Shown here: piece after piece, positions 9,935 through 43,997 of the stretch
Layout of the letters: the number at the start of each line of letters is the position of its first letter
Numbering within the stretch: the stretch's first letter is position 1
Notes under the pieces: generated by a model
Seen by the model: the letters and a program-made list of their open reading frames with translations, nothing else
The model's database searches: none
Told to the model about the DNA's origin: nothing
Translations under genes and position numbers: made by a program
Assembly: GCF_003289645.1 (NCBI RefSeq)
Contig: NZ_QLYX01000002.1
Location: 558,001 to 622,000, forward strand
From: Actinomadura craniellae
Lineage (GTDB): Bacteria > Actinomycetota > Actinomycetes > Streptosporangiales > Streptosporangiaceae
Direction of reading: 5' to 3'
DNA length: 64,000 nt

Positions 9935-10375
9935 ATGGCATTCGTGGTGGTCTACGACGCCAACCGCCCGGACATCCCATCGCAGAAGCTCGACAACCTG
10001 CGCCGACTTATGAACTTGGCCGTGCGGGACTGTCTGGTGGAAAATTACGAACCGCTGATCGAAGGACTGAAGCTTCCCGACCCTGGTGATCGGCATGTGC
10101 TTGCTGCTGCCATTCGGGCGAACGCCCAGGTCATCGTCACATCCAACCTCAAGGACTTCCCTGCGGAGGACATGGATCCCTGGGGCATAGAAGCGAAGTC
10201 CCCAGACGACTTCGTTCTCGATCAGATCGGCCTCGACAGCCGGATCGTATGGGCATGCGTTCAACAGATCGCGGATTCACGAAACAACCCGCCTGAAACA
10301 GTCGACGATGTACTGGACGCCTTGGAGGCTGCGGGTCTCGTAGAGGCAGTCGCCGCCCTGCGCACCGGTTACTGA
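9935..10375 (+). CDS. PIN-domain toxin remnant with internal in-frame deletion
   Basis: 146 residues. It starts MAFVVVYDANRPDIP, where the first strand and catalytic Asp (D8) of a PIN nuclease are present, but the sequence jumps directly to the segment that normally lies about 40 residues later (RPDIPSQKLDNLRRLMN). The later parts are intact: LPDPGDRHVLAAAIRANAQVIVTSNLKDFP and the C-terminal extension SPDDFVLDQIGLD. From memory, homologues carry VLYP and a helix with a conserved acidic residue in the missing piece. The frame stays open, so a shortened protein is probably made but likely inactive. It follows the antitoxin by 2 bp. Confidence 0.75.
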   Translation: MAFVVVYDANRPDIPSQKLDNLRRLMNLAVRDCLVENYEPLIEGLKLPDPGDRHVLAAAIRANAQVIVTSNLKDFPAEDMDPWGIEAKSPDDFVLDQIGLDSRIVWACVQQIADSRNNPPETVDDVLDALEAAGLVEAVAALRTGY

Positions 10376-10398: not shown

Positions 10399-12516
<2,118 letters not shown>

Positions 12517-17971: not shown

Positions 17972-19240
17972 TCAGCCGGTCAGCAGCAGCGCGCCCACCG
18001 CCGCAGCGCAGCCCGCCACCGCGAGCGCGGCCCCGGTGAGCACGAACCGGACGATCGGCACCTGGACGTCCCGGCGGCGGCACCACTCGAACCACAGCAG
18101 GGTGGCCAGCGACCCCCAGGGCGTGATCACCGGCCCGACGTTCGTGCCGATCAGCAGGGCGAGCAACTGGTCGCGGTCGCCCACCGGAACGACGGCCTCA
18201 CCGGCGACGTAGGCGGGCAGGTTGTTGAGCAGGTTGGACAGTCCGGCCCCGGCCGCGGCGGCCCGGAGCGCGCCCGCCACACCCCCCTCGGAGCCGATCA
18301 GGGCGGTCATCACCGCGTCGAGGCCGTACCGGCTGAGCGTCGGCACCACCAGGAACAGCCCGGTGACGAAGACCAGCAGCCGCCACGGGATCAGCGCCGG
18401 CCGCAGCGCGGACCGGTCGCGGACCGCGAACGCCAGCACGGCCACCGCCGCCGCGGCCGTCGCGGCCACGCCGATCTCGACCCCGGCCAGGATCGCGGCG
18501 ATGAACAGCAGGCAGGCCAGGCCGGTGGCCGAGAACAGCACCCGGTCGCGCACCGGGGACGGCTCGGGCGGGTCGTACCGGTCGGCGCCGCGCGCCCCGC
18601 GCCGCCAGTACCAGACCCACAGCAGCACCATCGTCACCGCCACGGACGCCGCCTGCGGCGCCCACATCCGGGCGGCGAACCCCGGCCCCTCCAGGGCCAC
18701 CCGGTCGGCGGCCAGCAGGTTGGTCAGGTTCGACACCGGCAGCAGGAGGCTGGCGGTGTTGGCCAGCCACACGGTCGTCATGGCCAGCGGCAGCGGGGCG
18801 ATCCGCGCCTTCGGGGCCAGCGCCAGCATCACCGGGGTGAGCAGCACCGCGGTGGTGTCGAGGTTCAGGAAGGTCGTCGTCAGCGCGGCGAAGGCGACGC
18901 ACAGCAGGAACAGCGCGCCGTAGCCGCCGCGCCCCAGCCGCGCCATCCGCTCGGCGATGAGGTCGAAGACCCCGGCCTCCTTGGTCAGCTCGGCCAGCAC
19001 GATGACGCTGCCCAGGAACACCAGCAGCGGGCCGATCCGGCGGATGCTCGCCTCGGCCTCCGCGACCGGCAGCAAGCCGGTGACCACGAAGAGCAACCCC
19101 AGGAACAACAGGCCGAACCGTACCCCGTCGAGCGGGTTCAGCAGACCGCGCAGGGGGCCACGGGAGGGCGGCACGGCCGCCATGATCTCACGACCGGCTG
19201 GTGAACTCTCCTGTTCCGGCGGACTTGTCCGCGACTCCAT
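17972..19240 (-). CDS. SLC13/ArsB-NhaD superfamily anion permease
   Basis: 422 residues from ATG 19240, which has GGGAGG seven bases upstream. About ten to eleven hydrophobic helices are seen. The typical SLC13/ArsB motifs are FAALTTTFLNLDTTAVLLTPVM (first re-entrant loop) and the C-terminal counterpart GLSNLLNNLPAYVAGEAV followed by GTNVGPVITPWGSLATLLW. Known relatives move arsenite, Na+ or dicarboxylates. No ars regulator or reductase gene is nearby, so arsenite is not supported. It is divergent from the TIR-NACHT gene, sharing a 119-bp intergenic region. Confidence 0.88.
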   Translation of the reverse strand: MESRTSPPEQESSPAGREIMAAVPPSRGPLRGLLNPLDGVRFGLLFLGLLFVVTGLLPVAEAEASIRRIGPLLVFLGSVIVLAELTKEAGVFDLIAERMARLGRGGYGALFLLCVAFAALTTTFLNLDTTAVLLTPVMLALAPKARIAPLPLAMTTVWLANTASLLLPVSNLTNLLAADRVALEGPGFAARMWAPQAASVAVTMVLLWVWYWRRGARGADRYDPPEPSPVRDRVLFSATGLACLLFIAAILAGVEIGVAATAAAAVAVLAFAVRDRSALRPALIPWRLLVFVTGLFLVVPTLSRYGLDAVMTALIGSEGGVAGALRAAAAGAGLSNLLNNLPAYVAGEAVVPVGDRDQLLALLIGTNVGPVITPWGSLATLLWFEWCRRRDVQVPIVRFVLTGAALAVAGCAAAVGALLLTG

Positions 19241-19346
19241 GCGCGTGCCTCCCGTCGCCTGCGATCGTGGCGCCGCCGCCGGAGGGCGTCCCGGATCGAC
19301 GCGCGTGAGCGGGGAAATTCTTACATCGGAGATCGCCCCTGCGGGT

Positions 19347-19360
19347 GATACTGGCCCCTA
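19347..19360 (+). promoter_or_regulatory. Candidate -10 for leaderless transcription of the TIR-NACHT gene
   Basis: GATACT at 19347-19352 lies seven bases before the ATG at 19360, and no ribosome site is visible before that ATG. This matches the leaderless pattern common in actinobacteria. A convincing -35 at 17-18 bp is not seen (TTACAT at 19321 is 20 bp away). The alternative GTG at 19345 would overlap this element. Confidence 0.35.
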
Positions 19361-22300
19361 TGACCCCTCGGGACGACACCCCCCGGCAGGATCGCCCGAC
19401 CGACTTCTTCATCAGCTACAACCCGGCCGACGAGCGCTGGGCGGCGTGGATCGCCTGGGAGCTGGAGTCCGCGGGCTTCCGGACGATGATGCAGGCCTGG
19501 CATTTCGTCCCCGGCACCAACTTCATCGACTTCATGGACCGCGGCCTGTCCGAGGCCAAGGTCGTGGTGGCGGTGCTCTCGGGCAACTACCTGCGCTCCC
19601 GGTACGGCCGGCTGGAGTGGATGACCGCGCTGCGCGCCGACCCCGACGACCCGGCCCGCAAGCTCGTCACCGTCCGGGTCGAGGACTGCGAGATCGAGGG
19701 CCTGCTGTCCACCATCACCTACGTGGACCTGGTCGGGGTGACCGACCCGCAGGAGGCCCGGGCGCTGCTGGTGCGCAGGATCGGTGAGGCCCTGGCCGGC
19801 CACGCGATGCCCGCGGTGGAGCCCGGCTTCCCCCGGACGGTCCGCGCGGCCGTCGAGCCGGCCCCGGCCGGGCCGGCGCCCACCGGGGAGCGCCCCTACC
19901 GGCGGACTCCGGTGGCCGCGCCGCCGTTCCCCGCCGGGACGGCCCTGGCGAGCGGGCCGCGCGAGCACCTGTCGGTGCTGCACGTGGGCGGGCCGCGGTT
20001 CGGCCGGACGCTGGCCGCCGCCGACGAGCCGGTGACCGCCGAGGAGTTGCAGGAGCGCATCTGGAGCGAGGTCACCCGGCTGGCCGACGAGGGCGTCCCC
20101 CGCCCCGACCTGCTGGTGGTCTCGGGCGACCTGACCGAGTCGGGGGGCCGCCGCGAGTTCGGCGAGGCGCTGTCCTTCCTGGCCGGTCTGCGGGCCCTGC
20201 TCGGGCTGGACGCGCAGCGGGTGGTGGTGGTGCCCGGCGAGCGCGACGTGACCCGCGCGGCCTGCCAGGCGTACTTCAACAACTGCGAGGCCGACGACAT
20301 CGAGCCGAAGCCGCCGTACTGGCCCAAGTGGCGGCACTTCGCCGGCCTGTTCGAGGAGCTCTACCAGGGGGTCGGCGGTGTCCTCTTCGACAGCGCCCAG
20401 CCCTGGACGCTGTTCGCCGTCCCGGACCTGAAGGTGGCGGTGGCCGGGCTCAATTCCACGCTCGCCCAGACCCACCGGCCCGAGGACCGTCACGGGTGGA
20501 TCGGCCGGGCCCAGGCCGCCTGGTTCGCCGAGCGGCTGCGTCCCTACGAGGAGGACGGCTGGCTGCGGCTGGGCGCGGTGCGGCACACCCCGGTGCGCGG
20601 CGAGCCCGGCGCGGTCCGGGACGCCGCCGCGGTCGAGGCGCTGCTGGGCGGTCACCTGAACCTGGTCTTCCAGGGGGTCCCGGCGCACCCGGGCCTGGTC
20701 CCGGAGCTGCCCTCGGGCGTCCCCTGCCTGCCCGCGCCGGGCCCGGGCGGCCACGAGATCTCGGTGATCACCGCGGCCGGGCTGACCCGCTGGTCACCCG
20801 ACCCGCCCGGCCGGGAGCCGCACCGGCTGGCCCGCGGCTGGCAGGGGGCGGGCGGCACCTTCCGCACGGCGCCGGAGCGGCCGCCCGAGCCGCAGCTGCC
20901 GGCCGGCGACCCCGATCCGGTCGCCGAGCCCGAACCCGACCCGGCGTCCCTGCTGCTGGAGCGCATCGCGGAGGCGTGCGAGACCCGGTTCGAGCGGGCC
21001 GGCATCCGGCGGATCGACGCCGACCCGCCGCACCTGCTGGTGACCCGGCTGGAGGACGGGTTCATCCGGCAGTACCTGATCGCCGCGCACGTCGGCGAGG
21101 TCACCGAGGCCGAGGTCGACGCGTTCCTCCAGCACGTCCACGCCGCCGAGACCTACCACGGCTCCGAGCTCGTCTACACCGGCCCGCCGCCGGCCCGGTC
21201 GCTGCGCTCGGAGGCGCTGCGCCGCGGTGTCCGGCTGCGCAGCTTCGTGGAGTTCCAGGGCCTGCTGGACCTGTCGGGCTACGTCGCCCGGCAGACCGCC
21301 GAGCTGACCTCGGGCCGGCTGTACCCGCCGGGCCTGTACGTGCCGCAGCGGTTCCGTGAGCTCGACCGTCCCGCTGCGAACGCGCGCGACGACCTGGTCG
21401 GCGAGATGCTCCAGTTGCTGACCGCCGACCACGGCCGGTTCGTGCTGCTGCTCGGCGACTTCGGTCGGGGCAAGACGTTCGCCCTGCGGGAGCTGGCCCG
21501 GCGGATCCCGGTGGAGCTGCCGCATGTCATCCCGATCCTGATCGAGCTGCGCACCCTCGACAAGGCGCAGTCGGTCGACGCGCTCGTCGCCGCGCACCTG
21601 GCCACCCACGGCGAGGAGCTGATCGACCTCAAGGCGTTCCACTACATGCTCGGCCAGGGCCGGGTGGTCCTGCTGTTCGACGGGTTCGACGAGCTGGTCA
21701 CCCGGGTGACCTACGACCGGGCCGCCGAGCACCTGGACACCCTGCTCCAGGCCGCCCGCGACAAGGCCAAGATCATCGTCGCCAGCCGCACCCAGCACTT
21801 CAAGTCCCAGGCGCAGATCCTCACCGCGCTCGGCGAGCGGGTCGGCGTGCTGCCGCACCGCCGGGTGCTGTCCATCGAGGACTTCAGCCGGGCGCAGATC
21901 CGGGCCTACCTGGTCAACCGGTACGGCGACGAGGACGCCGCGGACGCCCGGCTGCAGACGCTCAGCGGCATCGAGGACCTGCTCGGGCTGTCCAGCAACC
22001 CGCGGATGCTCGGCTTCATCGCCGACCTCCCCGAGGAGCGGCTGCGCGCCGTCGCCACCGCCTCCCAGACCGTCAGCGCCGCCCACCTCTACCGCGAGAT
22101 CCTGGACTTCTGGCTGTCGGTCGAGGCCGACCGGATGCGCCAGGCCGGCTCGGCCGGCGGGCTCGGCCTCACCGATCTCTGGCAGGCGGTGCGCGTCCTG
22201 GCGGTGCGGCTGTGGGAGGGCGACGAGCGCTCCCTGGGGCTGGCCGAGCTCTCCGACGTCGCCGCGGCGCTCACCGGGCTGGCCGAGGGGCAGATGTCGG

Positions 22301-25095
22301 CCCCCCAGGTCGCCCACGCGGTGGGCGGCGGCAGCCTGCTGGTGCACACCGCGGACGAGCGGTTCGGGTTCATCCACCGCTCGGTGACGGAATGGCTGAT
22401 CGCCGAGCGGATCGCCACCGAACTCGCCGTCGGGGCGCCCGCCCCGGCCATGCTGGGACGCCGGGCGCTGTCCCAGCTCACCGTGGAGTTCCTGTGCGAC
22501 CTCGCCGACACCCGCGCCTGCCAGGAATGGGCCGCCGGCGTCCTCGGCGACCCCGCCGCCGACGACGTCGAGCGCGCCAACGCCATCAAGGTCACCACCC
22601 GGCTGCGCACCCCGGCCCGGTCCGACCTGCGCGGCGCCAACCTGCAGGGCGAGGACCTGTCCCACCGCGACCTGCGCGAGGTCGACCTGACCGGGGCCAA
22701 CCTCGCCGACACCCAGCTCGTCGGGGCCAACCTCGCCCAGGCCGTGCTGCGGGACGCCGTCCTCACCGGCGCCCGGCTGGACGAGGCCCGGCTGACCGGC
22801 GCCGACCTGAGCGGCGCCGACCTGAGCCGGGCCCGGCTGACCCGGACGGACCTGCGGGACGTCACCCTCGACGGAAGCACCTGGACCCGCGCCGCCCTGA
22901 TCGACGCCGCCGTGTCCGACCGGGTCGCCGCCGCCCCCGAACTACACGACGCCGCCATCGCCCCGGGCCGGCCGGTGGAGGCCCAGTTCGCCCCCGCGGC
23001 GATCGGCGTCCCCTACGGGTTCCGGTTCCACGGCAGGACCAGCCGGCTCCCCCAGCCCCTCGCCTACTCCCCCGACGGCGCGAGCCTGGCGATCGGCAGC
23101 ATCGACGGCGGGGTGCTCGTCTGCGACCCGGTCACCGGGCAGCCGCTGCGCACCCTGCAGGGGCACCGCGACCGCACCTACGCGGTCACCTTCGGTCCGG
23201 CCGGCGGGCCGCTGGCCACCGGCTCCGCCGACGGCACCGTGCGGCTGTGGGATCCGGGCTCCGGTGTCTGCACCCGGGTCATCGACGTCCACCCGGAGGG
23301 GGTGTGGCCGCTGGTGGTCGGCCCGGACGGGACCACGGTGGTCGCCGGGGCCGCCGACGGCGTCCTGCGCGTCTGGGACGCCGCGACCGGCGAGCTCCGG
23401 CACAGCCTGCCCGGCCACACCTCGCCGGTCTACACCGCCGTGTTCAACGCCGAGGGAACGTCCCTGGTCACCGGCGACTCGCAGGGCGTCCTGCGCGTCT
23501 GGGACGTGCCCACCGGTGCGCTGCTGCGCACCCTCACCGGGCACCGGGGCGCGGTCTTCCAGATCCGGTTCACCCCCGACGGCACGCTGCTCGCCGCCGG
23601 CGACGAGGCCGGCACCGTCCGGCTGTGGGACATCGTCAGCGGCGAGGTGCGGCGGGAGCTGACCGGCCACACCGGCCGGATCTACTCGCTGGCCTTCCAT
23701 CCCGCCGGGCACCTGATGGTGACCGGCGACACCGACGGCGGCGTCCGGCTGTGGGCCGGCGAGCGCGGATCCCGGCCCCTGGTCGGCCACACCGGCGCGA
23801 TCTACCAGGCCGTCTTCAGCTCCGACGGCGGCACCCTCGCCACCGCCGACAGCGACGGCTCGATCCGGCTGTGGGATCCGGTGACCGGCCGGCAGCGGCT
23901 GGAGCTCACCGGGCACCGGGGCGCCGTCTGGCCGATCGCCTTCCGGCCCGACGGCGCGCAACTGGCCACCACCGGCAACGACGACAGCTTCCGGCTGTGG
24001 GACGTCGCCACCGGCCAGTGCCGGGTGGTGCGGCGCGGGCACGGGCGCCGGGTGGTCTCGGTGCGTTTCAGCACGGGCGGCGGGCTGCTGGCCAGCAGCG
24101 GCAACGACGGCGTGGTCCGGCTGTGGGAGCCCCGCAGCGGGCGCCTGGTGCGGACCCTGACCGGTGCCGCCGACCGCCTCACCTCGGCCGTGTTCGGCCC
24201 CGTGGGCGGGCAGCTGGCCACCGCCAGCAACGACGGCGGCGTGCACCTGTGGCAGGCGGGCACCGGCACGTTCGAGCGGGAGCTGGACGTGGAGACCGAG
24301 CACGTGTGGGCCCAGGCGTTCAGCCCCGACGGCGAGGTGCTGGCCACCGCCAACGACGACGACAGCGTGCGGCTGTGGTACCGGCTCAGCGGGCGTGAGA
24401 TCCGCAACCTGGCCGACCACCGCGGCCGGGTCCGCTCCATCGACTTCCACCCCGGCGGGACACTGGTCGCCACCGGATGCGACGACTCCCTGGTCCGGCT
24501 CTGGGACGCCGACACCGGCGCCTGCGTCCGGGTGCTGCGCGGCCATACCGACCGGGTGTACCAGGTGGCCTTCGACCGCACCGGCGACGTGCTCGCCACC
24601 GCCTCCAACGACGGCACCGCCCGGCTGTGGGACCCCTGGACGGGCGAGCCGCGGCACGTGCTCGCCCGGCACACCGGCCGGCTGTGGAGCGTCGCGTTCC
24701 ACCCCGACGGGGCGATGCTGGCCACCGCCGGCGACGACCTCGTCGTCCGGCTGTGGAACGCCGCCACCGGCGAGCACCTGCACACCCTGCCCGGGCACAC
24801 CCGCCGCGTCTCCTCGGTGGCCTTCAGCCCCGACGGGACCCTGCTGGCCAGCTGCGGCGACGACGGCGCGATCATCCTGTGGAGCCTGGACACCCCCGGC
24901 GAGCCGGCCCGCCGGGTGACGCTGCTGGGGCTCGCCGAGGGATGGGCCGCGCTGGCGCCCGACGGCCGCTACAAGCGGGCCGGGGAGACCGCGGGCGAGT
25001 TCTGGTACGCGATCGGCATGTGCCGGTTCGAGCCGGCCGAACTCGACCCCTACCTGTCCTCGGTGCGGCAGATCCCGCTCGACGCCGACTTCTGA
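19360..25095 (+). CDS. TIR / pseudo-metallophosphoesterase / NACHT / pentapeptide / WD40 STAND protein
   Basis: 1,911 residues. Domain order: TIR (about 14-150; DFFISYNPADERW, and LSGNYLRS then E86 in the NADase-Glu position); calcineurin-like metallophosphoesterase fold (about 203-480) with metal ligands replaced (HVGGPRFG, GDLTE, PGERD); restriction-endonuclease-like segment (about 530-650); NACHT ATPase (Walker A GDFGRGKT 699-706, Walker B LLFDGFDEL around 774); pentapeptide repeats (about 1089-1180; DLRGANLQGEDL); 15 WD40 repeats (about 1232-1843) with repeated RLWD ends; and a conserved tail (GEFWYAIGMCRFEP). TIR, NACHT and repeat sensors together match bacterial NLR-like immune proteins: repeats sense, NACHT oligomerises, TIR consumes NAD+. 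That function is inferred. No second system gene is directly adjacent on the same strand. Confidence 0.92.
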   Translation: MTPRDDTPRQDRPTDFFISYNPADERWAAWIAWELESAGFRTMMQAWHFVPGTNFIDFMDRGLSEAKVVVAVLSGNYLRSRYGRLEWMTALRADPDDPARKLVTVRVEDCEIEGLLSTITYVDLVGVTDPQEARALLVRRIGEALAGHAMPAVEPGFPRTVRAAVEPAPAGPAPTGERPYRRTPVAAPPFPAGTALASGPREHLSVLHVGGPRFGRTLAAADEPVTAEELQERIWSEVTRLADEGVPRPDLLVVSGDLTESGGRREFGEALSFLAGLRALLGLDAQRVVVVPGERDVTRAACQAYFNNCEADDIEPKPPYWPKWRHFAGLFEELYQGVGGVLFDSAQPWTLFAVPDLKVAVAGLNSTLAQTHRPEDRHGWIGRAQAAWFAERLRPYEEDGWLRLGAVRHTPVRGEPGAVRDAAAVEALLGGHLNLVFQGVPAHPGLVPELPSGVPCLPAPGPGGHEISVITAAGLTRWSPDPPGREPHRLARGWQGAGGTFRTAPERPPEPQLPAGDPDPVAEPEPDPASLLLERIAEACETRFERAGIRRIDADPPHLLVTRLEDGFIRQYLIAAHVGEVTEAEVDAFLQHVHAAETYHGSELVYTGPPPARSLRSEALRRGVRLRSFVEFQGLLDLSGYVARQTAELTSGRLYPPGLYVPQRFRELDRPAANARDDLVGEMLQLLTADHGRFVLLLGDFGRGKTFALRELARRIPVELPHVIPILIELRTLDKAQSVDALVAAHLATHGEELIDLKAFHYMLGQGRVVLLFDGFDELVTRVTYDRAAEHLDTLLQAARDKAKIIVASRTQHFKSQAQILTALGERVGVLPHRRVLSIEDFSRAQIRAYLVNRYGDEDAADARLQTLSGIEDLLGLSSNPRMLGFIADLPEERLRAVATASQTVSAAHLYREILDFWLSVEADRMRQAGSAGGLGLTDLWQAVRVLAVRLWEGDERSLGLAELSDVAAALTGLAEGQMSAPQVAHAVGGGSLLVHTADERFGFIHRSVTEWLIAERIATELAVGAPAPAMLGRRALSQLTVEFLCDLADTRACQEWAAGVLGDPAADDVERANAIKVTTRLRTPARSDLRGANLQGEDLSHRDLREVDLTGANLADTQLVGANLAQAVLRDAVLTGARLDEARLTGADLSGADLSRARLTRTDLRDVTLDGSTWTRAALIDAAVSDRVAAAPELHDAAIAPGRPVEAQFAPAAIGVPYGFRFHGRTSRLPQPLAYSPDGASLAIGSIDGGVLVCDPVTGQPLRTLQGHRDRTYAVTFGPAGGPLATGSADGTVRLWDPGSGVCTRVIDVHPEGVWPLVVGPDGTTVVAGAADGVLRVWDAATGELRHSLPGHTSPVYTAVFNAEGTSLVTGDSQGVLRVWDVPTGALLRTLTGHRGAVFQIRFTPDGTLLAAGDEAGTVRLWDIVSGEVRRELTGHTGRIYSLAFHPAGHLMVTGDTDGGVRLWAGERGSRPLVGHTGAIYQAVFSSDGGTLATADSDGSIRLWDPVTGRQRLELTGHRGAVWPIAFRPDGAQLATTGNDDSFRLWDVATGQCRVVRRGHGRRVVSVRFSTGGGLLASSGNDGVVRLWEPRSGRLVRTLTGAADRLTSAVFGPVGGQLATASNDGGVHLWQAGTGTFERELDVETEHVWAQAFSPDGEVLATANDDDSVRLWYRLSGREIRNLADHRGRVRSIDFHPGGTLVATGCDDSLVRLWDADTGACVRVLRGHTDRVYQVAFDRTGDVLATASNDGTARLWDPWTGEPRHVLARHTGRLWSVAFHPDGAMLATAGDDLVVRLWNAATGEHLHTLPGHTRRVSSVAFSPDGTLLASCGDDGAIILWSLDTPGEPARRVTLLGLAEGWAALAPDGRYKRAGETAGEFWYAIGMCRFEPAELDPYLSSVRQIPLDADF

Positions 25096-26824: not shown

Positions 26825-27424
26825 TCAGCCGGTGGCCTGTGCGACCAGCTTCGCCCAGACCTCCTCGACACGGGTGTCGAGGTCATCCAGCGAACCCGAG
26901 TTGTCGATCACATGGTCGGCGATCGCCAGCCGCTGCTCCCGGGTGGCCTGGGCGGCGATCCGGGCTCGCGCGTCCTCCTCGGGCATCCCGCGCCGGGACA
27001 CCAGCCGCTCCAGTTGCGTCTCCACCGGAACGTCGACCACCACGACCACGGCGTACACCGGCGCCAGCCCGTTCTCGGCCAGCAGCGGGACGTCGAACAC
27101 CACGATCGCGTCCGGCGGGGCCGCGGCCAGCAGCTCCTCCGACCGCTTCCCGACCAGCGGGTGGGTGATGGCGTTCAGCTTCGCCAGCCGCTCCGGATCG
27201 GAGAACACGATCTTTCCCAGGGCGGGCCGGTCGAGCCACCCGTCGGGCAGCAGCACACCCTCGCCGAACTCGGCCACGATCGCGGCCAGCCCGGGAGTGC
27301 CCGGCTCGACCACCTCCCGGGCCATCTGGTCGGAGTCGATGAGGACGGCGCCCCGGGCGACGAACCGCCGGGACACCTCGCTCTTGCCGGACCCGATCCC
27401 ACCGGTCAAACCCACGCGCAGCAC
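26825..27424 (-). CDS. coaE: Dephospho-CoA kinase
   Basis: 199 residues, GTG start at 27424. CoaE makes the last step of coenzyme A synthesis, phosphorylating the 3' hydroxyl of dephospho-CoA with ATP. Seen: P-loop [14 protein letters not shown] at residues 5-18, [37 protein letters not shown] and [20 protein letters not shown]. Length matches single-domain bacterial enzymes; the GrpB-like C-terminal fusion of mycobacterial CoaE is absent. It follows the GNAT gene by 10 bp. Confidence 0.95.
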
Positions 27425-30135: not shown

Positions 30136-31605
30136 TCACTGACCGCCGGACAGCTTCTCGCGCAGCGCCGCGAGGGCCTCGTCGGAGGCCAGGGCGCCAC
30201 CCGAGGCGGCCTCGGGCTCGGCACCGCCGGAGTACGACGTGTCGCCGCCCCCGCCGGCCGCCTCGGCCTCGGCCTTGCGGGCCTCCTCGACCTGCTTGCG
30301 GTGGGCGTCGAAGCGGGTGCGCGCCTCGGCGTACTGCCGCTCCCAGGTCTCCCGCTGGTCGTCGAAGCCCTCGAGCCACTCGCCGGTCTCGGAGTCGAAG
30401 CCCTCGGGGTACTTGTAGTTGCCCTCGGCGTCGTACTCGGCGGGCATGCCGTAGAGGGTCGGGTCGAAGTCCTCCTCGTCGATGCCGGCCGCGCTCTCGT
30501 TGGCCTGCTTGAGCGAGAGGCTGATCCGGCGCCGGTCGAGGTCGATGTCGATGATCTTCACGAAGATCTCGTCGCCGACCTGGACGACCTGCTCGGGGAT
30601 CTCGACGTGCCGCTCCGCGAGCTCGGAGATGTGCACCAGACCCTCGATGCCCTCCTCGACCCGGACGAACGCGCCGAACGGCACCAGCTTGGTGACCCGG
30701 CCGGGCACGACCTGGCCGATCTGGTGGGTGCGGGCGAACTGCTGCCAGGGGTCTTCCTGCGTCGCCTTGAGCGACAGCGAGACCCGCTCGCGCTCCATGT
30801 CGACGTCGAGGACCTCGACCGTGACCTCCTGGCCGACCTCGACGACCTCGGAGGGGTGGTCGATGTGCTTCCAGGACAGCTCGGAGACGTGCACCAGACC
30901 ATCGACGCCGCCGAGGTCGACGAACGCGCCGAAGTTGACGATCGAGGAGACGACGCCCTTGCGGACCTGGCCCTTCTGCAGGGTGTTGAGGAAGGTCTGG
31001 CGGACCTCGCTCTGGGTCTGCTCCAGCCAGGCGCGCCGGGACAGGACCACGTTGTTGCGGTTCTTGTCCAGCTCGATGATCTTGGCCTCGAGCTCGCGGC
31101 CGACGTAGGGCTGCAGGTCGCGGACCCGGCGCATCTCCACCAGCGAAGCGGGGAGGAAGCCGCGCAGCCCGATGTCGAGGATGAGACCGCCCTTGACGAC
31201 CTCGATGACCGTACCGGTGACGATGCCGTCCTCGTCCTTGATCTTCTCGATCGTGCCCCAGGCGCGCTCGTACTGGGCGCGCTTCTTGGAGAGGATCAGC
31301 CGACCTTCCTTGTCCTCCTTCTGGAGGACCAGGGCCTCGACGTGGTCTCCGACCTTGACGACCTCGTTGGGGTCGACGTCGTGCTTGATCGACAGCTCGC
31401 GCGAGGGGATGACGCCCTCGGTCTTGTAGCCGATGTCGAGCAAGACCTCGTCTCGGTCGACCTTGACGACGGTGCCTTCGACAATGTCGCCGTCGTTGAA
31501 GTACTTGATGGTCTCGTCAATCGCGGCGAGGAAGGCTTCCTCTGACCCGATGTCGTTGACCGCTACCTGCGGGGTGGTCGAGGTGGCCTCGGTGCTGCTC
31601 GTCAT
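30136..31605 (-). CDS. rpsA: 30S ribosomal protein S1
   Basis: 489 residues from ATG 31605 (MTSSTEATSTTPQVAVNDIG); longer in-frame starts upstream have no S1 character. Four S1/OB repeats are visible: around residues 36-105 (GTVVKVDRDEVLLDIGYKTEG), 122-187 (GLILDIGLRGFLPASLVE), 207-277 (IVNFGAFVDLGGVDGLVHVSEL) and 292-364 (LVPFGAFVRVEEGIEGLVHISEL). The last two have canonical RNA-binding surfaces. The acidic/Gly-rich C-terminal tail (AEAEAAGGGGDTSYSG) is typical of actinobacteria. It binds mRNA and helps initiation on the 30S subunit. The terminator follows at 30051-30092. Confidence 0.97.
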   Translation of the reverse strand: MTSSTEATSTTPQVAVNDIGSEEAFLAAIDETIKYFNDGDIVEGTVVKVDRDEVLLDIGYKTEGVIPSRELSIKHDVDPNEVVKVGDHVEALVLQKEDKEGRLILSKKRAQYERAWGTIEKIKDEDGIVTGTVIEVVKGGLILDIGLRGFLPASLVEMRRVRDLQPYVGRELEAKIIELDKNRNNVVLSRRAWLEQTQSEVRQTFLNTLQKGQVRKGVVSSIVNFGAFVDLGGVDGLVHVSELSWKHIDHPSEVVEVGQEVTVEVLDVDMERERVSLSLKATQEDPWQQFARTHQIGQVVPGRVTKLVPFGAFVRVEEGIEGLVHISELAERHVEIPEQVVQVGDEIFVKIIDIDLDRRRISLSLKQANESAAGIDEEDFDPTLYGMPAEYDAEGNYKYPEGFDSETGEWLEGFDDQRETWERQYAEARTRFDAHRKQVEEARKAEAEAAGGGGDTSYSGGAEPEAASGGALASDEALAALREKLSGGQ

Positions 31606-31837
31606 GTGTCGACTGACTCCGGATACGGACATAGTAGGTGTCTGGTGTTCGCGCGGAGGGCCCCTGTCCGCCCTGCCGAGAACCGGAGGATGGCAAATGA
31701 CTACTTCGCCGTTGAACCGATGCCGACCTGACCGAGCGCGAGCCTGCTCCGTCTGAAGCGCGCGCAAGCCCACAGCGCAACGATCAGCATATTGGACCAG
31801 GCGCGCAGGGTCAATCCGGAGCCCGGCGCGCGACCGC

Positions 31838-33103: not shown

Positions 33104-35791
33104 CTAGTGGCCGGCGTCCTGCCAGGTGCGGCCGGTGCCCATGGAGACGTCGAGGGGGGCGCGCAGCTCGTAGGCGCCGCACATCTGCTCGCGGGCCAGC
33201 GCCTGCAGCTCGTCGAGCTCGCCGGGGGCCACCTCGAAGACCAGTTCGTCGTGCACCTGGAGCAGCATCCGCGAGGCCAGCCCGCGCTCGCGCAGCGCCC
33301 GGTCCACCCGCAGGCTCGCCACCTTGATGATGTCGGCGGCCGACCCCTGGATCGGCGCGTTCAGCGCCATCCGCTCGGCCATCTCCCGGCGCTGCCGGTT
33401 GTCGGAGTTCAGGTCGGGCAGGTAGCGGCGGCGGCCGAGGATGGTCTCGGTGTACCCGTCCTGCCGGGCCTGCCGGACCACGTCCTGCAGGTAGTCGCGG
33501 ACCCCGCCGAACTGCTGGAAGTACTCCTCCATCAGCGCGCGGGCCTCGTCCGGCGGGATGCGCAGCTGCTGGGACAGGCCGAACGGGGACAGCCCGTAGG
33601 CCAGCCCGTAGTTCATCGCCTTGATGCGGCTGCGCAGCTCGCCGTCGACCTGCTCGGGCGGCACGTCGAACACCCGGGCCGCGGTGATCGTGTGGAAGTC
33701 GGCCCCCGAGGTGAACGCGTCGATCAGCGCCTCGTCGCCCGACAGGTGCGCCATGATGCGCAGCTCGATCTGGCTGTAGTCGGCGGTGAGCAGGCACTCA
33801 TAGCCCTTGCCCACCACGAACGCCTCACGGATCTGCCGCCCCTCGGCGGTACGGATCGGGATGTTCTGCAGGTTGGGGTCGGTGGACGACAGCCGGCCGG
33901 TGGCCGCGATCATCTGGTTGAACGTGGTGTGGATGCGCCCGGCGTCGTCGACCATCGGCATCAGCGAGTCGACGATGCTCTTGAGCTTGGCCACCTCGCG
34001 CCAGCGCAGGATGTGCTCCAGCACCGGGTGCCCGTTACTCACCAGCAGGTTCGTCAGCGCCTCGGAGTCGGTGGTGTACCCGGTCTTGGTGCGCTTGGTC
34101 TTGGGCAGCCCCAGCTCGTCGAACAGCACCTGCTGCACCTGCTTGGGCGACCCCAGGTTGAACTCGCGGCCGACCGCGGTGTGCGCGTGCTGCTCGACGT
34201 CCTTGACCTGACCGCCCAGAGACGCCGACAACCCCGCCAGGTGGTCGACGTCGACCGCGATACCCGCCCGCTCCATCTCGGCGAGCACCTGCACCAGCGG
34301 CAGCTCCACCTCGTGCAGCAACCGCGCCGCACCGCGCCGCTCCAGGTCGCGGTCGAGCGCGTCGGCCAGCTCGGCCACCGCACGGGCCCGCACCGCCAGG
34401 TCGCGGGCGACCTCCTCCTCACCGGAGCCGTCCAGGGTGAGCTGCCCCGAGGGGTCGGCCTCGCCGCGCAGCTCACGCCGCAGGTAGCGCAGCACCAGAT
34501 CACCCAGGTCGAAGGTGCGCTGTCCGGGCAGCGCCAGGTAGGCGGCCAGCGCCGTGTCGCTGGTGACCCCGGCCAGGGTCAGGCCACGGGCGGCGAACGC
34601 CAGCGCCGGCCCCTTGACGTCGTGCAGCGCCTTGGGCCGGGCCGGGTCGGCCAGCCAGCCGGCCAGCGCCTGCTCGTCCTCGGCCACCAGCGCCGCCGGG
34701 TCCAGGTGCACCGCCGGGCCCTTCTTGCTGGCCAGCGCGACCCCGGTCAGCTCACCGGTGCCCCGCCCCCAGCTGCCGGTGACGGCCACCCCCACCCGGT
34801 CGGGCCCCGCGGCGTGCTCGGCCAGCCAGGCCGCCAGCTCACCCGGGCCGGGCAGGGTCAGGTCGACCTCGAATCCCTCGTCGGCCTCCGGCTGCACCGC
34901 CGACAGGCTGGCGTACAGCCGCTCGCGCAGCGCCCGGAACTCCAGGCTGTCGAAGAGGGTGTGGATCGCCTCGCGGTCCCACTGGCCCATCTGCAGCTGC
35001 GGCGGGGCCGCCTCCAGCGGCACCGCGCAGTCGAGCTTGTTGATCTGCTGGTTGCGCAGCACGTCGCCGAGGTGCTCGCGCAGGTTGTCGCCCGCCTTGC
35101 CCTTGATCTCGTCGACATGCGCGACCAGCGTGTCGAGATCGCCGTACTTGATCAGCCACTTGGCCGCGGTCTTGGGCCCCACCCCCGGCACCCCGGGTAG
35201 GTTGTCGCTGGTCTCACCGACCAGCGCGGCCAGCTCGCGGTAACGCTCGGGCGGTACCCCGTACTTCTGGGTCACCGCCGGCGGGTCCATCCGGCTCAGC
35301 TCGGAAACGCCCCTGACCGGGTACAGCACGGTGACGTGCTCGCCGACGAGCTGGAAGGCGTCGCGGTCACCGGTGACGATCAGTGTCTCGTAGCCCAGGC
35401 CGGCCCCCTGCGTCGCCAGCGTCGCGATCAGGTCGTCGGCCTCGAAGCCCGCCACCGACAGCCGCGGGATGCGCAGCACGTCGAGCACCTCGAAGATCAG
35501 GCTCATCTGGCTGCGGAAGTCGTCGGGCGTCTCGCGCCGCCCCGCCTTGTACTCGACGTACTGCTCGTGCCGGAAGGTCGGCTCGGAGCGGTCGAAGCAC
35601 ACCGCGATATGGGTGGGCCGCTCGTCGCGCAGCACGTTGATCAGCATCGAGGTGAACCCGAACACCGCGTTGGTGGGCTGCCCGGTGACGGTCGAGAAGT
35701 TCTCCAGAGGGAGCGCGAAGAACGCCCGATATGCCAGGGAATGCCCGTCCAGCAGGAGAAGACGGTTCTTGTCAGGGGTCGCTTCCATCAT
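33104..35791 (-). CDS. polA: DNA polymerase I
   Basis: 895 residues. ATG 35791 is chosen because AGGG lies five bases before it; GTG 35797 has no spacing. The N-terminal 5'-nuclease (about 10-290) begins LLLLDGHSLAYRAFFALP. The middle exonuclease-fold region (about 310-500) has lost the Asp/Glu metal ligands (VGVAVTGSWGRGTGELTG), as is usual in actinobacterial PolA. The polymerase has motif A DYSQIELRIMAHLSG, motif B region RIKAMNYGLAYGLSPFG and motif C LLQVHDELVFE. It fills gaps and removes primers in replication and repair. It is divergent from the thioesterase gene. Confidence 0.97.
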   Translation of the reverse strand: MMEATPDKNRLLLLDGHSLAYRAFFALPLENFSTVTGQPTNAVFGFTSMLINVLRDERPTHIAVCFDRSEPTFRHEQYVEYKAGRRETPDDFRSQMSLIFEVLDVLRIPRLSVAGFEADDLIATLATQGAGLGYETLIVTGDRDAFQLVGEHVTVLYPVRGVSELSRMDPPAVTQKYGVPPERYRELAALVGETSDNLPGVPGVGPKTAAKWLIKYGDLDTLVAHVDEIKGKAGDNLREHLGDVLRNQQINKLDCAVPLEAAPPQLQMGQWDREAIHTLFDSLEFRALRERLYASLSAVQPEADEGFEVDLTLPGPGELAAWLAEHAAGPDRVGVAVTGSWGRGTGELTGVALASKKGPAVHLDPAALVAEDEQALAGWLADPARPKALHDVKGPALAFAARGLTLAGVTSDTALAAYLALPGQRTFDLGDLVLRYLRRELRGEADPSGQLTLDGSGEEEVARDLAVRARAVAELADALDRDLERRGAARLLHEVELPLVQVLAEMERAGIAVDVDHLAGLSASLGGQVKDVEQHAHTAVGREFNLGSPKQVQQVLFDELGLPKTKRTKTGYTTDSEALTNLLVSNGHPVLEHILRWREVAKLKSIVDSLMPMVDDAGRIHTTFNQMIAATGRLSSTDPNLQNIPIRTAEGRQIREAFVVGKGYECLLTADYSQIELRIMAHLSGDEALIDAFTSGADFHTITAARVFDVPPEQVDGELRSRIKAMNYGLAYGLSPFGLSQQLRIPPDEARALMEEYFQQFGGVRDYLQDVVRQARQDGYTETILGRRRYLPDLNSDNRQRREMAERMALNAPIQGSAADIIKVASLRVDRALRERGLASRMLLQVHDELVFEVAPGELDELQALAREQMCGAYELRAPLDVSMGTGRTWQDAGH

Positions 35792-35871
35792 GGCCACCCT
35801 GTGAGCCTAGCCTTCGGTTACGACACTTACCGGCAGGTCGCCCGGCCTGCCGCCACCATGAAGGGGAAAGC

Positions 35872-43087: not shown

Positions 43088-43163
43088 GCCCCGGTAGCCC
43101 AATCGGCAGACAGGCAGCACCCTCAAAAGGTGAACAGTGTGGGTTCGAGTCCCACCCGGGGCA
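43088..43163 (+). tRNA. tRNA-Leu (anticodon CAA), short variable loop
   Basis: 76 bases. Acceptor stem GCCCCGG/CCGGGGC with discriminator A; TA at 8-9; D arm GCC...GGC with a loop of 13; anticodon stem GCACC/GGTGA around loop CTCAAAA, giving anticodon CAA (codon UUG); variable loop only ACAGT; T arm GTGGG-TTCGAGT-CCCAC. CCA is not encoded. The top anticodon pair would be G-A, a mismatch. Bacterial tRNA-Leu normally has a long variable arm, which this one lacks, although I recall similar Leu(CAA) annotations in actinomycetes. A terminator follows directly. Confidence 0.85.
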
Positions 43164-43170
43164 CTCTGTA

Positions 43171-43199
43171 ACCGCCACTCCACGTTGAGTGGCGGTTTT
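43171..43199 (+). terminator. Intrinsic terminator of the tRNA
   Basis: Perfect 10-bp stem ACCGCCACTC/GAGTGGCGGT (43171-43180, 43187-43196), loop CACGTT, followed by TTTT-like run ending at 43199. One of the few T-tailed terminators in the window. Confidence 0.85.
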
Positions 43200-43226
43200 G
43201 TCGTACCCGGGCGAGATACTCGACGC

Positions 43227-43997
43227 ATGTACCCCCAAGAAACCGTGGAACGAGCTCTTCGTCTCGCGAGCCAAGGTGTTCCCGACCACGAGAACGCTTA
43301 TATCTGTGGCGTCTCAGTGAGCGCCATCCGCAAATGGCGACGAGGTGAACGACGCAATCCTGAGCACGAAGATCAACGCAATAAGAGCACCTGCCCACGC
43401 TGCGACAGCCGCGAACTGGACGCTCCCCGCTACGCCTACCTGTTAGGCCTCTATCTCGGCGACGGACACATCGCTCGTACACATCGGGCAGATGTTTACC
43501 GACTAGAGATCGCCTGCTGTGACGACTGGCCAGGCCTCATGGACATGACAGAGCAAGCGATATCCGCCGTCATGCCAGGCCTTAAAGTGGGACGTCGCCG
43601 CAGTACCGGATGCACGAATGTGGGCGCGTACTCAAAGCACTGGCCTTGTGTGCTCCCCCAACATGGGCCAGGAAAGAAGCACGCCCGGAAGATCGAAATC
43701 GTTCCCTGGCAGCAGCCGATCGTCAACGAGCATCGTGCTGAATTGGTACGGGGGCTGATTCATTCGGATGGGTGCCGGGTGACCAACCGGGTAAGGCGGC
43801 CCTGCAAGGACGGAGACCGCTGGTACGAGTACCCGCGCTACTTCTTCACCAACGCATCAGACGATATCCGACAAATATTCACCGATTCGCTCGATGAACT
43901 GGGCATCGCCTGGAAGCGATCCAACGCCCGTAACATCTCGGTGGCGCGGAAGGACGCGGTGGCGCGGTTGGACGGTTTCGTGGGGCCGAAGTACTGA
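43227..43997 (+). CDS. LAGLIDADG homing-endonuclease-like protein with N-terminal HTH
   Basis: 256 residues from ATG 43227. An N-terminal helix-turn-helix (ETVERALRLASQGVPD...VSVSAIRKWRRG) is followed by a zinc-finger-like CPRCDS and two LAGLIDADG-type helices: YLLGLYLGDGHI and LVRGLIHSDGCRV, each with the metal-binding Asp. Between them lie the DNA-binding beta segments. Such free-standing genes sit beside tRNA genes in other actinobacteria (from memory). It starts 64 bp past the tRNA. Its composition is visibly less GC-rich than the neighbours, a sign of transfer. Nuclease activity is not proven; it could be a regulator. Confidence 0.85.
   Translation: MYPQETVERALRLASQGVPDHENAYICGVSVSAIRKWRRGERRNPEHEDQRNKSTCPRCDSRELDAPRYAYLLGLYLGDGHIARTHRADVYRLEIACCDDWPGLMDMTEQAISAVMPGLKVGRRRSTGCTNVGAYSKHWPCVLPQHGPGKKHARKIEIVPWQQPIVNEHRAELVRGLIHSDGCRVTNRVRRPCKDGDRWYEYPRYFFTNASDDIRQIFTDSLDELGIAWKRSNARNISVARKDAVARLDGFVGPKY

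What the first reader, a model, noticed from the sequence alone, without database searches (positions are those of the whole stretch)
19360..25095. TIR-pseudophosphoesterase-NACHT-pentapeptide-WD40 protein, a candidate new bacterial NLR architecture
One 1,911-residue chain joins an effector (TIR with E86 in the usual catalytic position), a NACHT ATPase and a very large repeat sensor (pentapeptides plus 15 WD40). TIR-STAND and NACHT immune proteins are established, but this order with an extra phosphoesterase-like module and a restriction-enzyme-like segment between TIR and NACHT is one I do not know. It fits a single-gene abortive-infection system in which the sensor repeats recognise a phage or cell signal and the TIR consumes NAD+.
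Basis: partly seen in the sequence, partly recalled or inferred. Interest (0 to 1): 0.88.

Follow-up and report, generated by a model that had tools for sequence, protein, structure and literature searches.

The report
Bacterial immune receptor with retired enzyme
A very large immune-receptor-like protein, inherited at a fixed chromosomal place in one group of soil bacteria, still carries a second, disabled enzyme that its simpler relatives keep intact, which suggests that such receptors can change weapons while keeping the old one as a structural part.

Summary
The 1,911-residue ORF (19360-25095 +) reads TIR - calcineurin-like phosphoesterase (MPE) without most metal ligands - NA-iREase3 - NACHT - pentapeptides - about 15 WD40 blades - C-terminal cap. 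The best reading is a TIR-effector, NLR-like STAND receptor.

The 'defence-island, single-gene' picture needs correction. All 81 relatives fetched first keep the layout as far as their contigs reach. They sit in a core-chromosome neighbourhood and track core genes. In 76 of 76 checkable cases the next gene is a divergent ArsB/CitMHS-type permease.

The new part is the history of the phosphoesterase. Six relatives without any N-terminal effector keep 7 of 7 ligand positions; four of them lie beside a SLATT_2 membrane protein. Where a second effector precedes the MPE the site is mostly lost: 101 of 106 TIR forms keep at most 3 of 7. Of two trypsin-like forms one keeps the site, one has lost it. 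The dead MPE is still under purifying selection (dN/dS 0.17; linkers 0.41-0.49). So this looks like repeated effector take-over with the old effector kept as a pseudoenzyme. The contrast test is underpowered. Anti-phage action, NADase activity and the permease's role are untested.

The parts
19360..25095 (+). whole gene, 1,911 aa (GTG start at 19345 also possible)
19347..19354 (+). GATACTGG, a conserved -10-like box directly before ATG 19360; suggests a leaderless transcript (inferred)
   Evidence: pattern found in 41 of 76 relatives
19399..19809 (+). TIR domain (residues 14-150); E86 codon at 19615-19617
   Evidence: Pfam TIR_2 E=4e-34; E86 in 77 of 77 rows
19957..20799 (+). calcineurin-like phosphoesterase fold (residues 200-480) without most metal ligands
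   Evidence: Foldseek and VIA-align to Rv0805 and others; ligand positions
20950..21273 (+). NA-iREase3, NACHT-associated inactive restriction-endonuclease-like domain (residues 531-638)
   Evidence: PF22739 E=1.4e-41
21436..21918 (+). NACHT NTPase (residues 693-853), Walker A 21454-21477, Walker B 21670-21693
   Evidence: PF05729 E=2.6e-11; K705 and D774 in 82 of 82 rows
22621..22929 (+). pentapeptide repeats (about residues 1088-1190)
   Evidence: PF00805 E=2e-22; NCBIfam pentapeptide models
23044..24885 (+). WD40 blades, 14 counted plus a degenerate first one (about residues 1229-1842)
24886..25092 (+). conserved C-terminal cap (residues 1843-1911), no Pfam family above its cut-off
17972..19240 (-). 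divergent ArsB/CitMHS-type permease, possible partner
   Evidence: CitMHS E=1e-38, ArsB E=1e-24; adjacent in 76 of 76 checkable loci
19241..19359 (.). intergenic region between the divergent pair

Best explanation
A core-genome, vertically inherited NLR-like STAND receptor. WD40 and pentapeptide repeats sense a cue (inferred). The NACHT module exchanges ATP and oligomerises (inferred from the family). The N-terminal TIR domains are brought together and cleave NAD+, stopping growth or making a nucleotide signal (inferred from the intact glutamate). The phosphoesterase between TIR and NACHT is the effector of the ancestral design. After the TIR was added in front it lost its metal site and was kept as a folded pseudoenzyme, probably as a scaffold or nucleotide-binding regulatory part. 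Shown here: the domain order, the family-wide loss of ligands, purifying selection on the dead domain, intact ligands in effector-less relatives, vertical inheritance and the linked permease. Inferred: that the MPE-only form is ancestral. Not shown: the trigger, NADase activity, phage defence, the permease's role.
For: Domains. Same chain in 81 of 81 relatives as far as contigs reach: 4 are cut before the TIR, and in L089 the TIR lies in a shifted frame. Ligand table, 120 of 124 rows with at most one gap: no N-terminal effector 6 of 6 with 7/7 ligands; TIR 4 with 7/7, 1 with 5/7, 101 with at most 3/7; trypsin-like 1 intact, 1 lost; 6 rows cut or frame-shifted before the MPE, each at most 3/7. 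NACHT tree of 60 rows, drawn with L094 as outgroup: effector-less, MPE-intact L095/L140/L141/L142 are the sister group of the window's clade (95/94); at least 5 changes of MPE state and 4 of N-terminal effector. dN/dS medians over up to 548 (not independent) pairs: TIR 0.08, MPE 0.17, iREase 0.18, NACHT 0.23, WD40 0.28, linkers 0.41 and 0.49. Partner genes differ by effector: SLATT_2 beside 4 of 6 effector-less genes, Trypco1 beside 1 of 2 protease genes, the permease beside TIR orthologues; no SLATT_2 gene was found beside a TIR form among the held loci.
Against: No activity, trigger or phage phenotype was tested. Only 3 independent contrasts exist on the tree and the sign test is not significant (median p 0.5, range 0.25-1). 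Five proteins keep an intact MPE despite a second effector, so loss is not automatic. Even intact MPEs read DxQ instead of the usual DxH. Two of 6 effector-less forms (L105, L142) have no SLATT_2 match in their genomes. Five orthologues of family f87 with upstream sequence have no permease match in the fetched stretch. The root of the tree is assumed, so 'ancestral' is an inference.
Confidence: 0.6

Rival explanations
1. It is not an anti-phage device but a core regulator of stress or development in filamentous actinomycetes that uses the NLR design, perhaps tied to the ion or anion transport of the divergent permease.
For: Usually one copy per genome at a fixed core locus, tracking core genes; 0 of 10 neighbours hit PADLOC; the divergent ArsB/CitMHS permease in 76 of 76 checkable loci; WD40 region colinear in the pair aligned and under purifying selection. 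A precedent that NLR-like genes serve the host's own programme: LypABC in Caulobacter (PMC13236601, abstract and outline seen).
Against: Patchy presence (26 of 101; 148 of 345) fits a dispensable system. TIR with intact glutamate and modules typical of conflict systems. G074 keeps the permease at the core locus without the NLR.
Confidence: 0.3
2. The phosphoesterase is not dead but works with a non-canonical site, or binds a nucleotide as sensor of the TIR product.
For: One His (H409) is invariant and D257 is D or N; the domain is under strong purifying selection.
Against: Motif I Asp is Gly in 82 of 82 rows; the Asn of the GNH motif and the GHxH motif are lost in the window and the family rows shown; Metallophos score below the family cut-off. 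The binding half of this rival is not excluded.
Confidence: 0.2
3. The association of a second effector with MPE loss is accidental: a few ancient losses inherited by many genomes.
For: Only 5 changes of MPE state on the tree and 3 independent contrasts, not significant.
Against: If a lost seven-ligand site is never regained, the tree needs about 8 separate losses (counted by eye), every one in proteins that have a second effector, including one with a trypsin-like effector.
Confidence: 0.3

Closest known systems
Bacterial NACHT (bNACHT) antiphage proteins
   Same: Tripartite plan: N-terminal effector, central NACHT, C-terminal sensor (PMC12169576, passages).
   Different: bNACHT25 and bNACHT32 there carry a DNase effector and NCH1; here TIR plus dead MPE plus iREase, and a WD40/pentapeptide sensor. 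Placement in the bNACHT clades was not tested.
STAND NTPase and related conflict systems with TIR, calcineurin, trypsin or caspase effectors (Aravind group)
   Same: The same effector repertoire in front of STAND NTPases (PMC8195603, passages); SLATT and Trypco partner genes in the GAP1-N1 and VMAP systems (PMC7159879, passages).
   Different: In the passages read the effectors alternate. I saw no mention there of two stacked with the inner one inactivated, nor of the permease; neither paper was read whole.
DS9_1 anti-phage phosphoesterase (NCBIfam NF053862)
   Same: Best-scoring named phosphoesterase model in NCBIfam: E=7e-14 for the window MPE, 2e-30 for an intact relative.
   Different: 51.5 and 106 bits against a cut-off of 420.
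Class III cyclic-nucleotide phosphodiesterase Rv0805
   Same: Fold: Z 20.9, 3.0 A over 220 residues (the top row, 9a6c_B, has Z 22.6). The enzyme's class is recalled.
   Different: The metal ligands are mostly missing here.

Membership tests
NACHT-type STAND / NLR-like receptor | NACHT domain with Walker A and Walker B | tested here: met
   PF05729 44.1 bits, cut-off 26.7; K705 and D774 in 82 of 82 rows
NACHT-type STAND / NLR-like receptor | C-terminal repeat sensor and N-terminal effector in one chain | tested here: met
   domain order only
NACHT-type STAND / NLR-like receptor | ligand-induced, ATP-dependent oligomerisation | not testable with these tools
   needs biochemistry
TIR NADase | TIR fold with the catalytic-type glutamate | tested here: met
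   TIR_2 E=4e-34; TIR chains matched by Foldseek; E86 77 of 77
TIR NADase | NAD+ cleavage | not testable with these tools
   needs assay
Active calcineurin-like phosphoesterase | fold | tested here: met
   Z 20.9 to Rv0805
Active calcineurin-like phosphoesterase | DxH, GD, GNH, H and GHxH metal ligands | tested here: not met
   window has 2 of 7 scored positions (from the motifs); motif I Asp is Gly in 82 of 82
NA-iREase3 (PF22739) | score over the curated cut-off | tested here: met
   142 bits, cut-off 27
DS9_1 anti-phage phosphoesterase | score over the NCBIfam cut-off of 420 bits | tested here: not met
   51.5 bits
EruA NACHT antiphage protein | score over the NCBIfam cut-off of 1000 bits | tested here: not met
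   34.5 bits
Mobile or defence-island antiphage system | neighbourhood of defence or mobile genes | tested here: not met
   core genes around it; 0 of 10 neighbours hit PADLOC
Mobile or defence-island antiphage system | protects against phage | not testable with these tools
   needs phage challenge

The most novel reading that the evidence does not exclude
Bacterial NLRs change weapons by stacking. The ancestral receptor used a phosphoesterase with a SLATT pore. TIR (perhaps more than once) or a trypsin-like protease was added in front; the phosphoesterase then lost catalysis and became a conserved nucleotide-reading or gating part, and the partner gene was exchanged too (SLATT to Trypco1, or to an ArsB-like permease acting as membrane partner). 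The window's gene and its permease would be a two-gene, core-genome immune module.
Probability: 0.2. Interest if true: 0.85.

Novelty: new variant of a known kind. Interest (0 to 1): 0.62.

Why it matters
It offers a natural series (phosphoesterase alone, two intact effectors, one intact plus one dead) in which to ask how immune receptors replace an effector without breaking the receptor. It also shows an NLR-like gene that is vertically inherited at a core locus rather than mobile. The intact and dead versions make the role of the pseudoenzyme directly testable.

Tried and rejected
Viral contigs gave no relative (32 pattern matches, 0 confirmed). Phage records gave 2 partial matches with the effector-less relative. 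Of 26 plasmid records matched by residues 1-1087, one covers at least 80% of the query: an 11.85 Mb Nonomuraea record filed as a plasmid; the effector-less query matched 24 plasmid records, again only that one over 80%. PF22739 was found over its cut-off in 1 of 296 genomes across the phylum, the window's own, plus one sub-threshold match, so that search did not widen the set. In the divergent intergenic region no operator common to both genes was made out; the alignment was printed only in part. The independent-contrast test was underpowered. Literature searches (open-licence PMC papers only; listings of at most 20 papers) showed no description of this chain; most subscription papers were not searched, so absence from print is not claimed. 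The second structure job and one genome search were not used. The phosphoesterase filled the VIA-align list, so the TIR fold rests on Pfam and Foldseek and the iREase on Pfam alone.

Rows dropped before the ligand count: L138 (contig already held as L085), L096 and L148 (one gene of G061, frame-shifted within the TIR, MPE decayed), L144 (contig already held as L086), and 4 rows with more than one gap (L119, L134, L136, L137). Other near-duplicates were not removed. In the tree three rows with unknown N-terminus (L119, L123, L137) had been labelled TIR; leaving them out gives the same 4 changes. The loci were picked by similarity to MPE queries, which biases the sample.
Full report
What is there. 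The ORF at 19360-25095 (+) is real: 1,911 codons, GC3 0.98. Pfam gives TIR_2, a sub-threshold Metallophos, NA-iREase3, NACHT, pentapeptides and 14 WD40 stretches in that order. A predicted structure of residues 1-690 from 34 sequences (mean pLDDT 75, pTM 0.53) matches calcineurin-like phosphoesterases over residues 200-481 (Rv0805, Z 20.9, 3.0 A, 220 aligned) and TIR domains of MyD88, SARM1 and SPARTA (Foldseek). In its genome the other 16 matches all begin at residue 1080 or later, so there is one copy of the N-terminal part.

Where it sits. The window is core chromosome: uvrB (10399-12516 -), coaE (26825-27424 -), rpsA (30136-31773 -) and polA (33104-35797 -), named by me from their translations, keep their order in many relatives. 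The gene lies back to back with an ArsB/CitMHS-type permease. One scan of bacterial genomes returned 221 relatives, of which the best 80 were kept. With one Nonomuraea record that is 81 proteins. All share the chain from MPE through iREase and NACHT into the pentapeptides; four lack the TIR because the contig ends there (L024, L036, L059, L086), L089 has the TIR in a shifted frame, and L018, L031, L086 and L089 run off the contig at the other end. The permease is the immediate divergent neighbour in 76 of the 76 loci with enough upstream sequence, gap 34-465 bases. A GATACTGG box stands directly before the start codon in the window and in 41 of those 76, as expected of a leaderless transcript. 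Distances between the NLRs follow those of RpsA, UvrB, CoaE and the permease (Mantel r 0.80, 0.92, 0.89, 0.92 on 51, 37, 65 and 75 loci; 0 of 500 permutations reach any of them). This is what vertical inheritance predicts.

How widespread. With the window's MPE, 26 of 101 genomes of the order match. The permease query matches 52 of the same 101 at E <= 0.001, 31 of them below 1e-80. By my reading of the two tables, 24 of the 26 have such a strong permease match and 7 of the 75 others have one. Leaving out the TIR-less G064 and G095, 24 matches remain (TIR not checked one by one): 22 have the permease directly beside them, G091 about 1.3 kb away, and G061 lacks it; G061's gene is frame-shifted within the TIR. 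G074 keeps the permease between coaE and uvrB with no NLR. With an intact relative's MPE, 148 of 345 genomes of the order match, four of them twice. In family f87, five orthologues (L112, L120, L121, L122, L126) have one or more of the genes matching window 15384, 16405 and 17107 nearby but no permease match in the fetched stretch, so the pair is not universal.

The phosphoesterase story. In the window's family the motif I Asp is Gly in 82 of 82 rows and the His of DxH is Arg in 81 of 82; the Asn of GNH is replaced and GHxH is lost in the rows shown. H409 is invariant, D257 is D (48) or N (34). Searching outward found relatives in which the MPE is the N-terminal domain: L094, L095, L105, L140, L141, L142. 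All six keep 7 of 7 scored ligand positions, though motif I reads DxQ rather than DxH. Four TIR-bearing proteins (L106-L109) keep all seven. L110 keeps five. The other 101 TIR rows keep at most three. Two proteins carry a Trypsin_2 domain in place of TIR (E=3e-14 and 2e-11): L143 keeps seven, L147 has lost the site. Six further rows, cut or frame-shifted before the MPE, have at most three (120 of 124 rows counted). On a 60-row tree of the iREase-NACHT region, drawn with L094 as outgroup, the four effector-less L095, L140, L141 and L142 are sister to the window's clade (support 95/94). MPE state changes at least 5 times and N-terminal effector at least 4 times. The formal contrast test has 3 pairs; the MPE goes the expected way in 2.3 of them on average, never the other way, and the test is not significant.

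Is the dead domain kept? Yes. Median dN/dS over 548 pairs of orthologues (not independent) is 0.17 for the MPE, like the iREase (0.18) and below NACHT (0.23), against 0.41 and 0.49 for the linkers; TIR is the most constrained (0.08, 513 usable pairs) and WD40 shows no sign of diversifying selection at this level (0.28). The estimate is my own Nei-Gojobori-type script; median dS is 0.29-0.58.

Partners. SLATT_2 (PF18183, E between 2e-33 and 1e-43) is encoded next to 4 of the 6 effector-less genes (L094, L095, L140, L141). In a search of 14 chosen genomes, SLATT_2 relatives at E below 1e-30 occur only in those four; L142's and L105's genomes have none, L142 being at a contig end. Among the 151 sequences then held, no other locus has a convincing SLATT_2 match; two weak ones, in L027 and L054, lie at the end of the NLR gene. 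The gene beside L143 encodes Trypco1 (E=2e-25); none was found beside L147. Kaur et al. 2020 describe SLATT beside calcineurin and other nucleotide effectors, and Trypco beside trypsin (PMC7159879, passages). One relative, L094, is split into two overlapping genes after the NACHT.

Mechanism. By analogy with NLRs and bNACHT proteins (PMC12169576, passages): the repeats sense, the NACHT assembles, the TIRs act on NAD+. The dead MPE and the iREase between them are most simply a spacer or scaffold that positions the TIRs, or a nucleotide-binding regulatory part. None of these steps was tested. The permease could be a membrane partner, as SLATT is thought to be, or only a regulatory neighbour.

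Novelty. TIR-STAND and calcineurin-STAND proteins are known kinds; the passages I read list these effectors as alternatives. The stacked order with a family-wide dead phosphoesterase, the graded series of relatives, the partner change and the core-genome permease pair are what I add. My literature check covers only open-licence PMC papers.

Noticed in passing
window 43137-43997 + and 43088-43164 +: An ORF of unusually low GC3 (0.66) overlaps the end of a tRNA-Leu(CAA) gene and has a weak LAGLIDADG_3 match (E=0.001, below cut-off); possibly a homing endonuclease remnant or insertion at a tRNA.
   Followed up: partly
window 9935-10375 +: A PIN-domain ORF (PIN_3 E=7e-6) of low GC3 (0.70) next to uvrB, possibly an acquired toxin gene.
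   Followed up: partly
L094 9465-14698: A relative split into two overlapping genes, MPE-iREase-NACHT and pentapeptide-WD40-cap, with strikingly uniform WD40 blades; a natural two-part receptor.
   Followed up: partly
L141 and L146 (genome G778): One genome holds both the effector-less, MPE-intact relative with SLATT_2 and a TIR orthologue with the permease.
   Followed up: partly
L118 3115-9225 -: A relative whose TIR is of a visibly different type (TIR_2 only E=1.6e-9), suggesting a separate TIR acquisition.
   Followed up: partly
L149 1403-7467 +: A Nostoc plasmid typed as conjugative carries a 1,443-residue metallophosphoesterase gene directly followed by a NACHT gene, so the pairing exists outside actinobacteria.
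   Followed up: no
L148 3562-9269 - (genome G061): TIR-NLR gene frame-shifted within the TIR in a single-contig genome that also lacks the neighbouring permease.
   Followed up: partly
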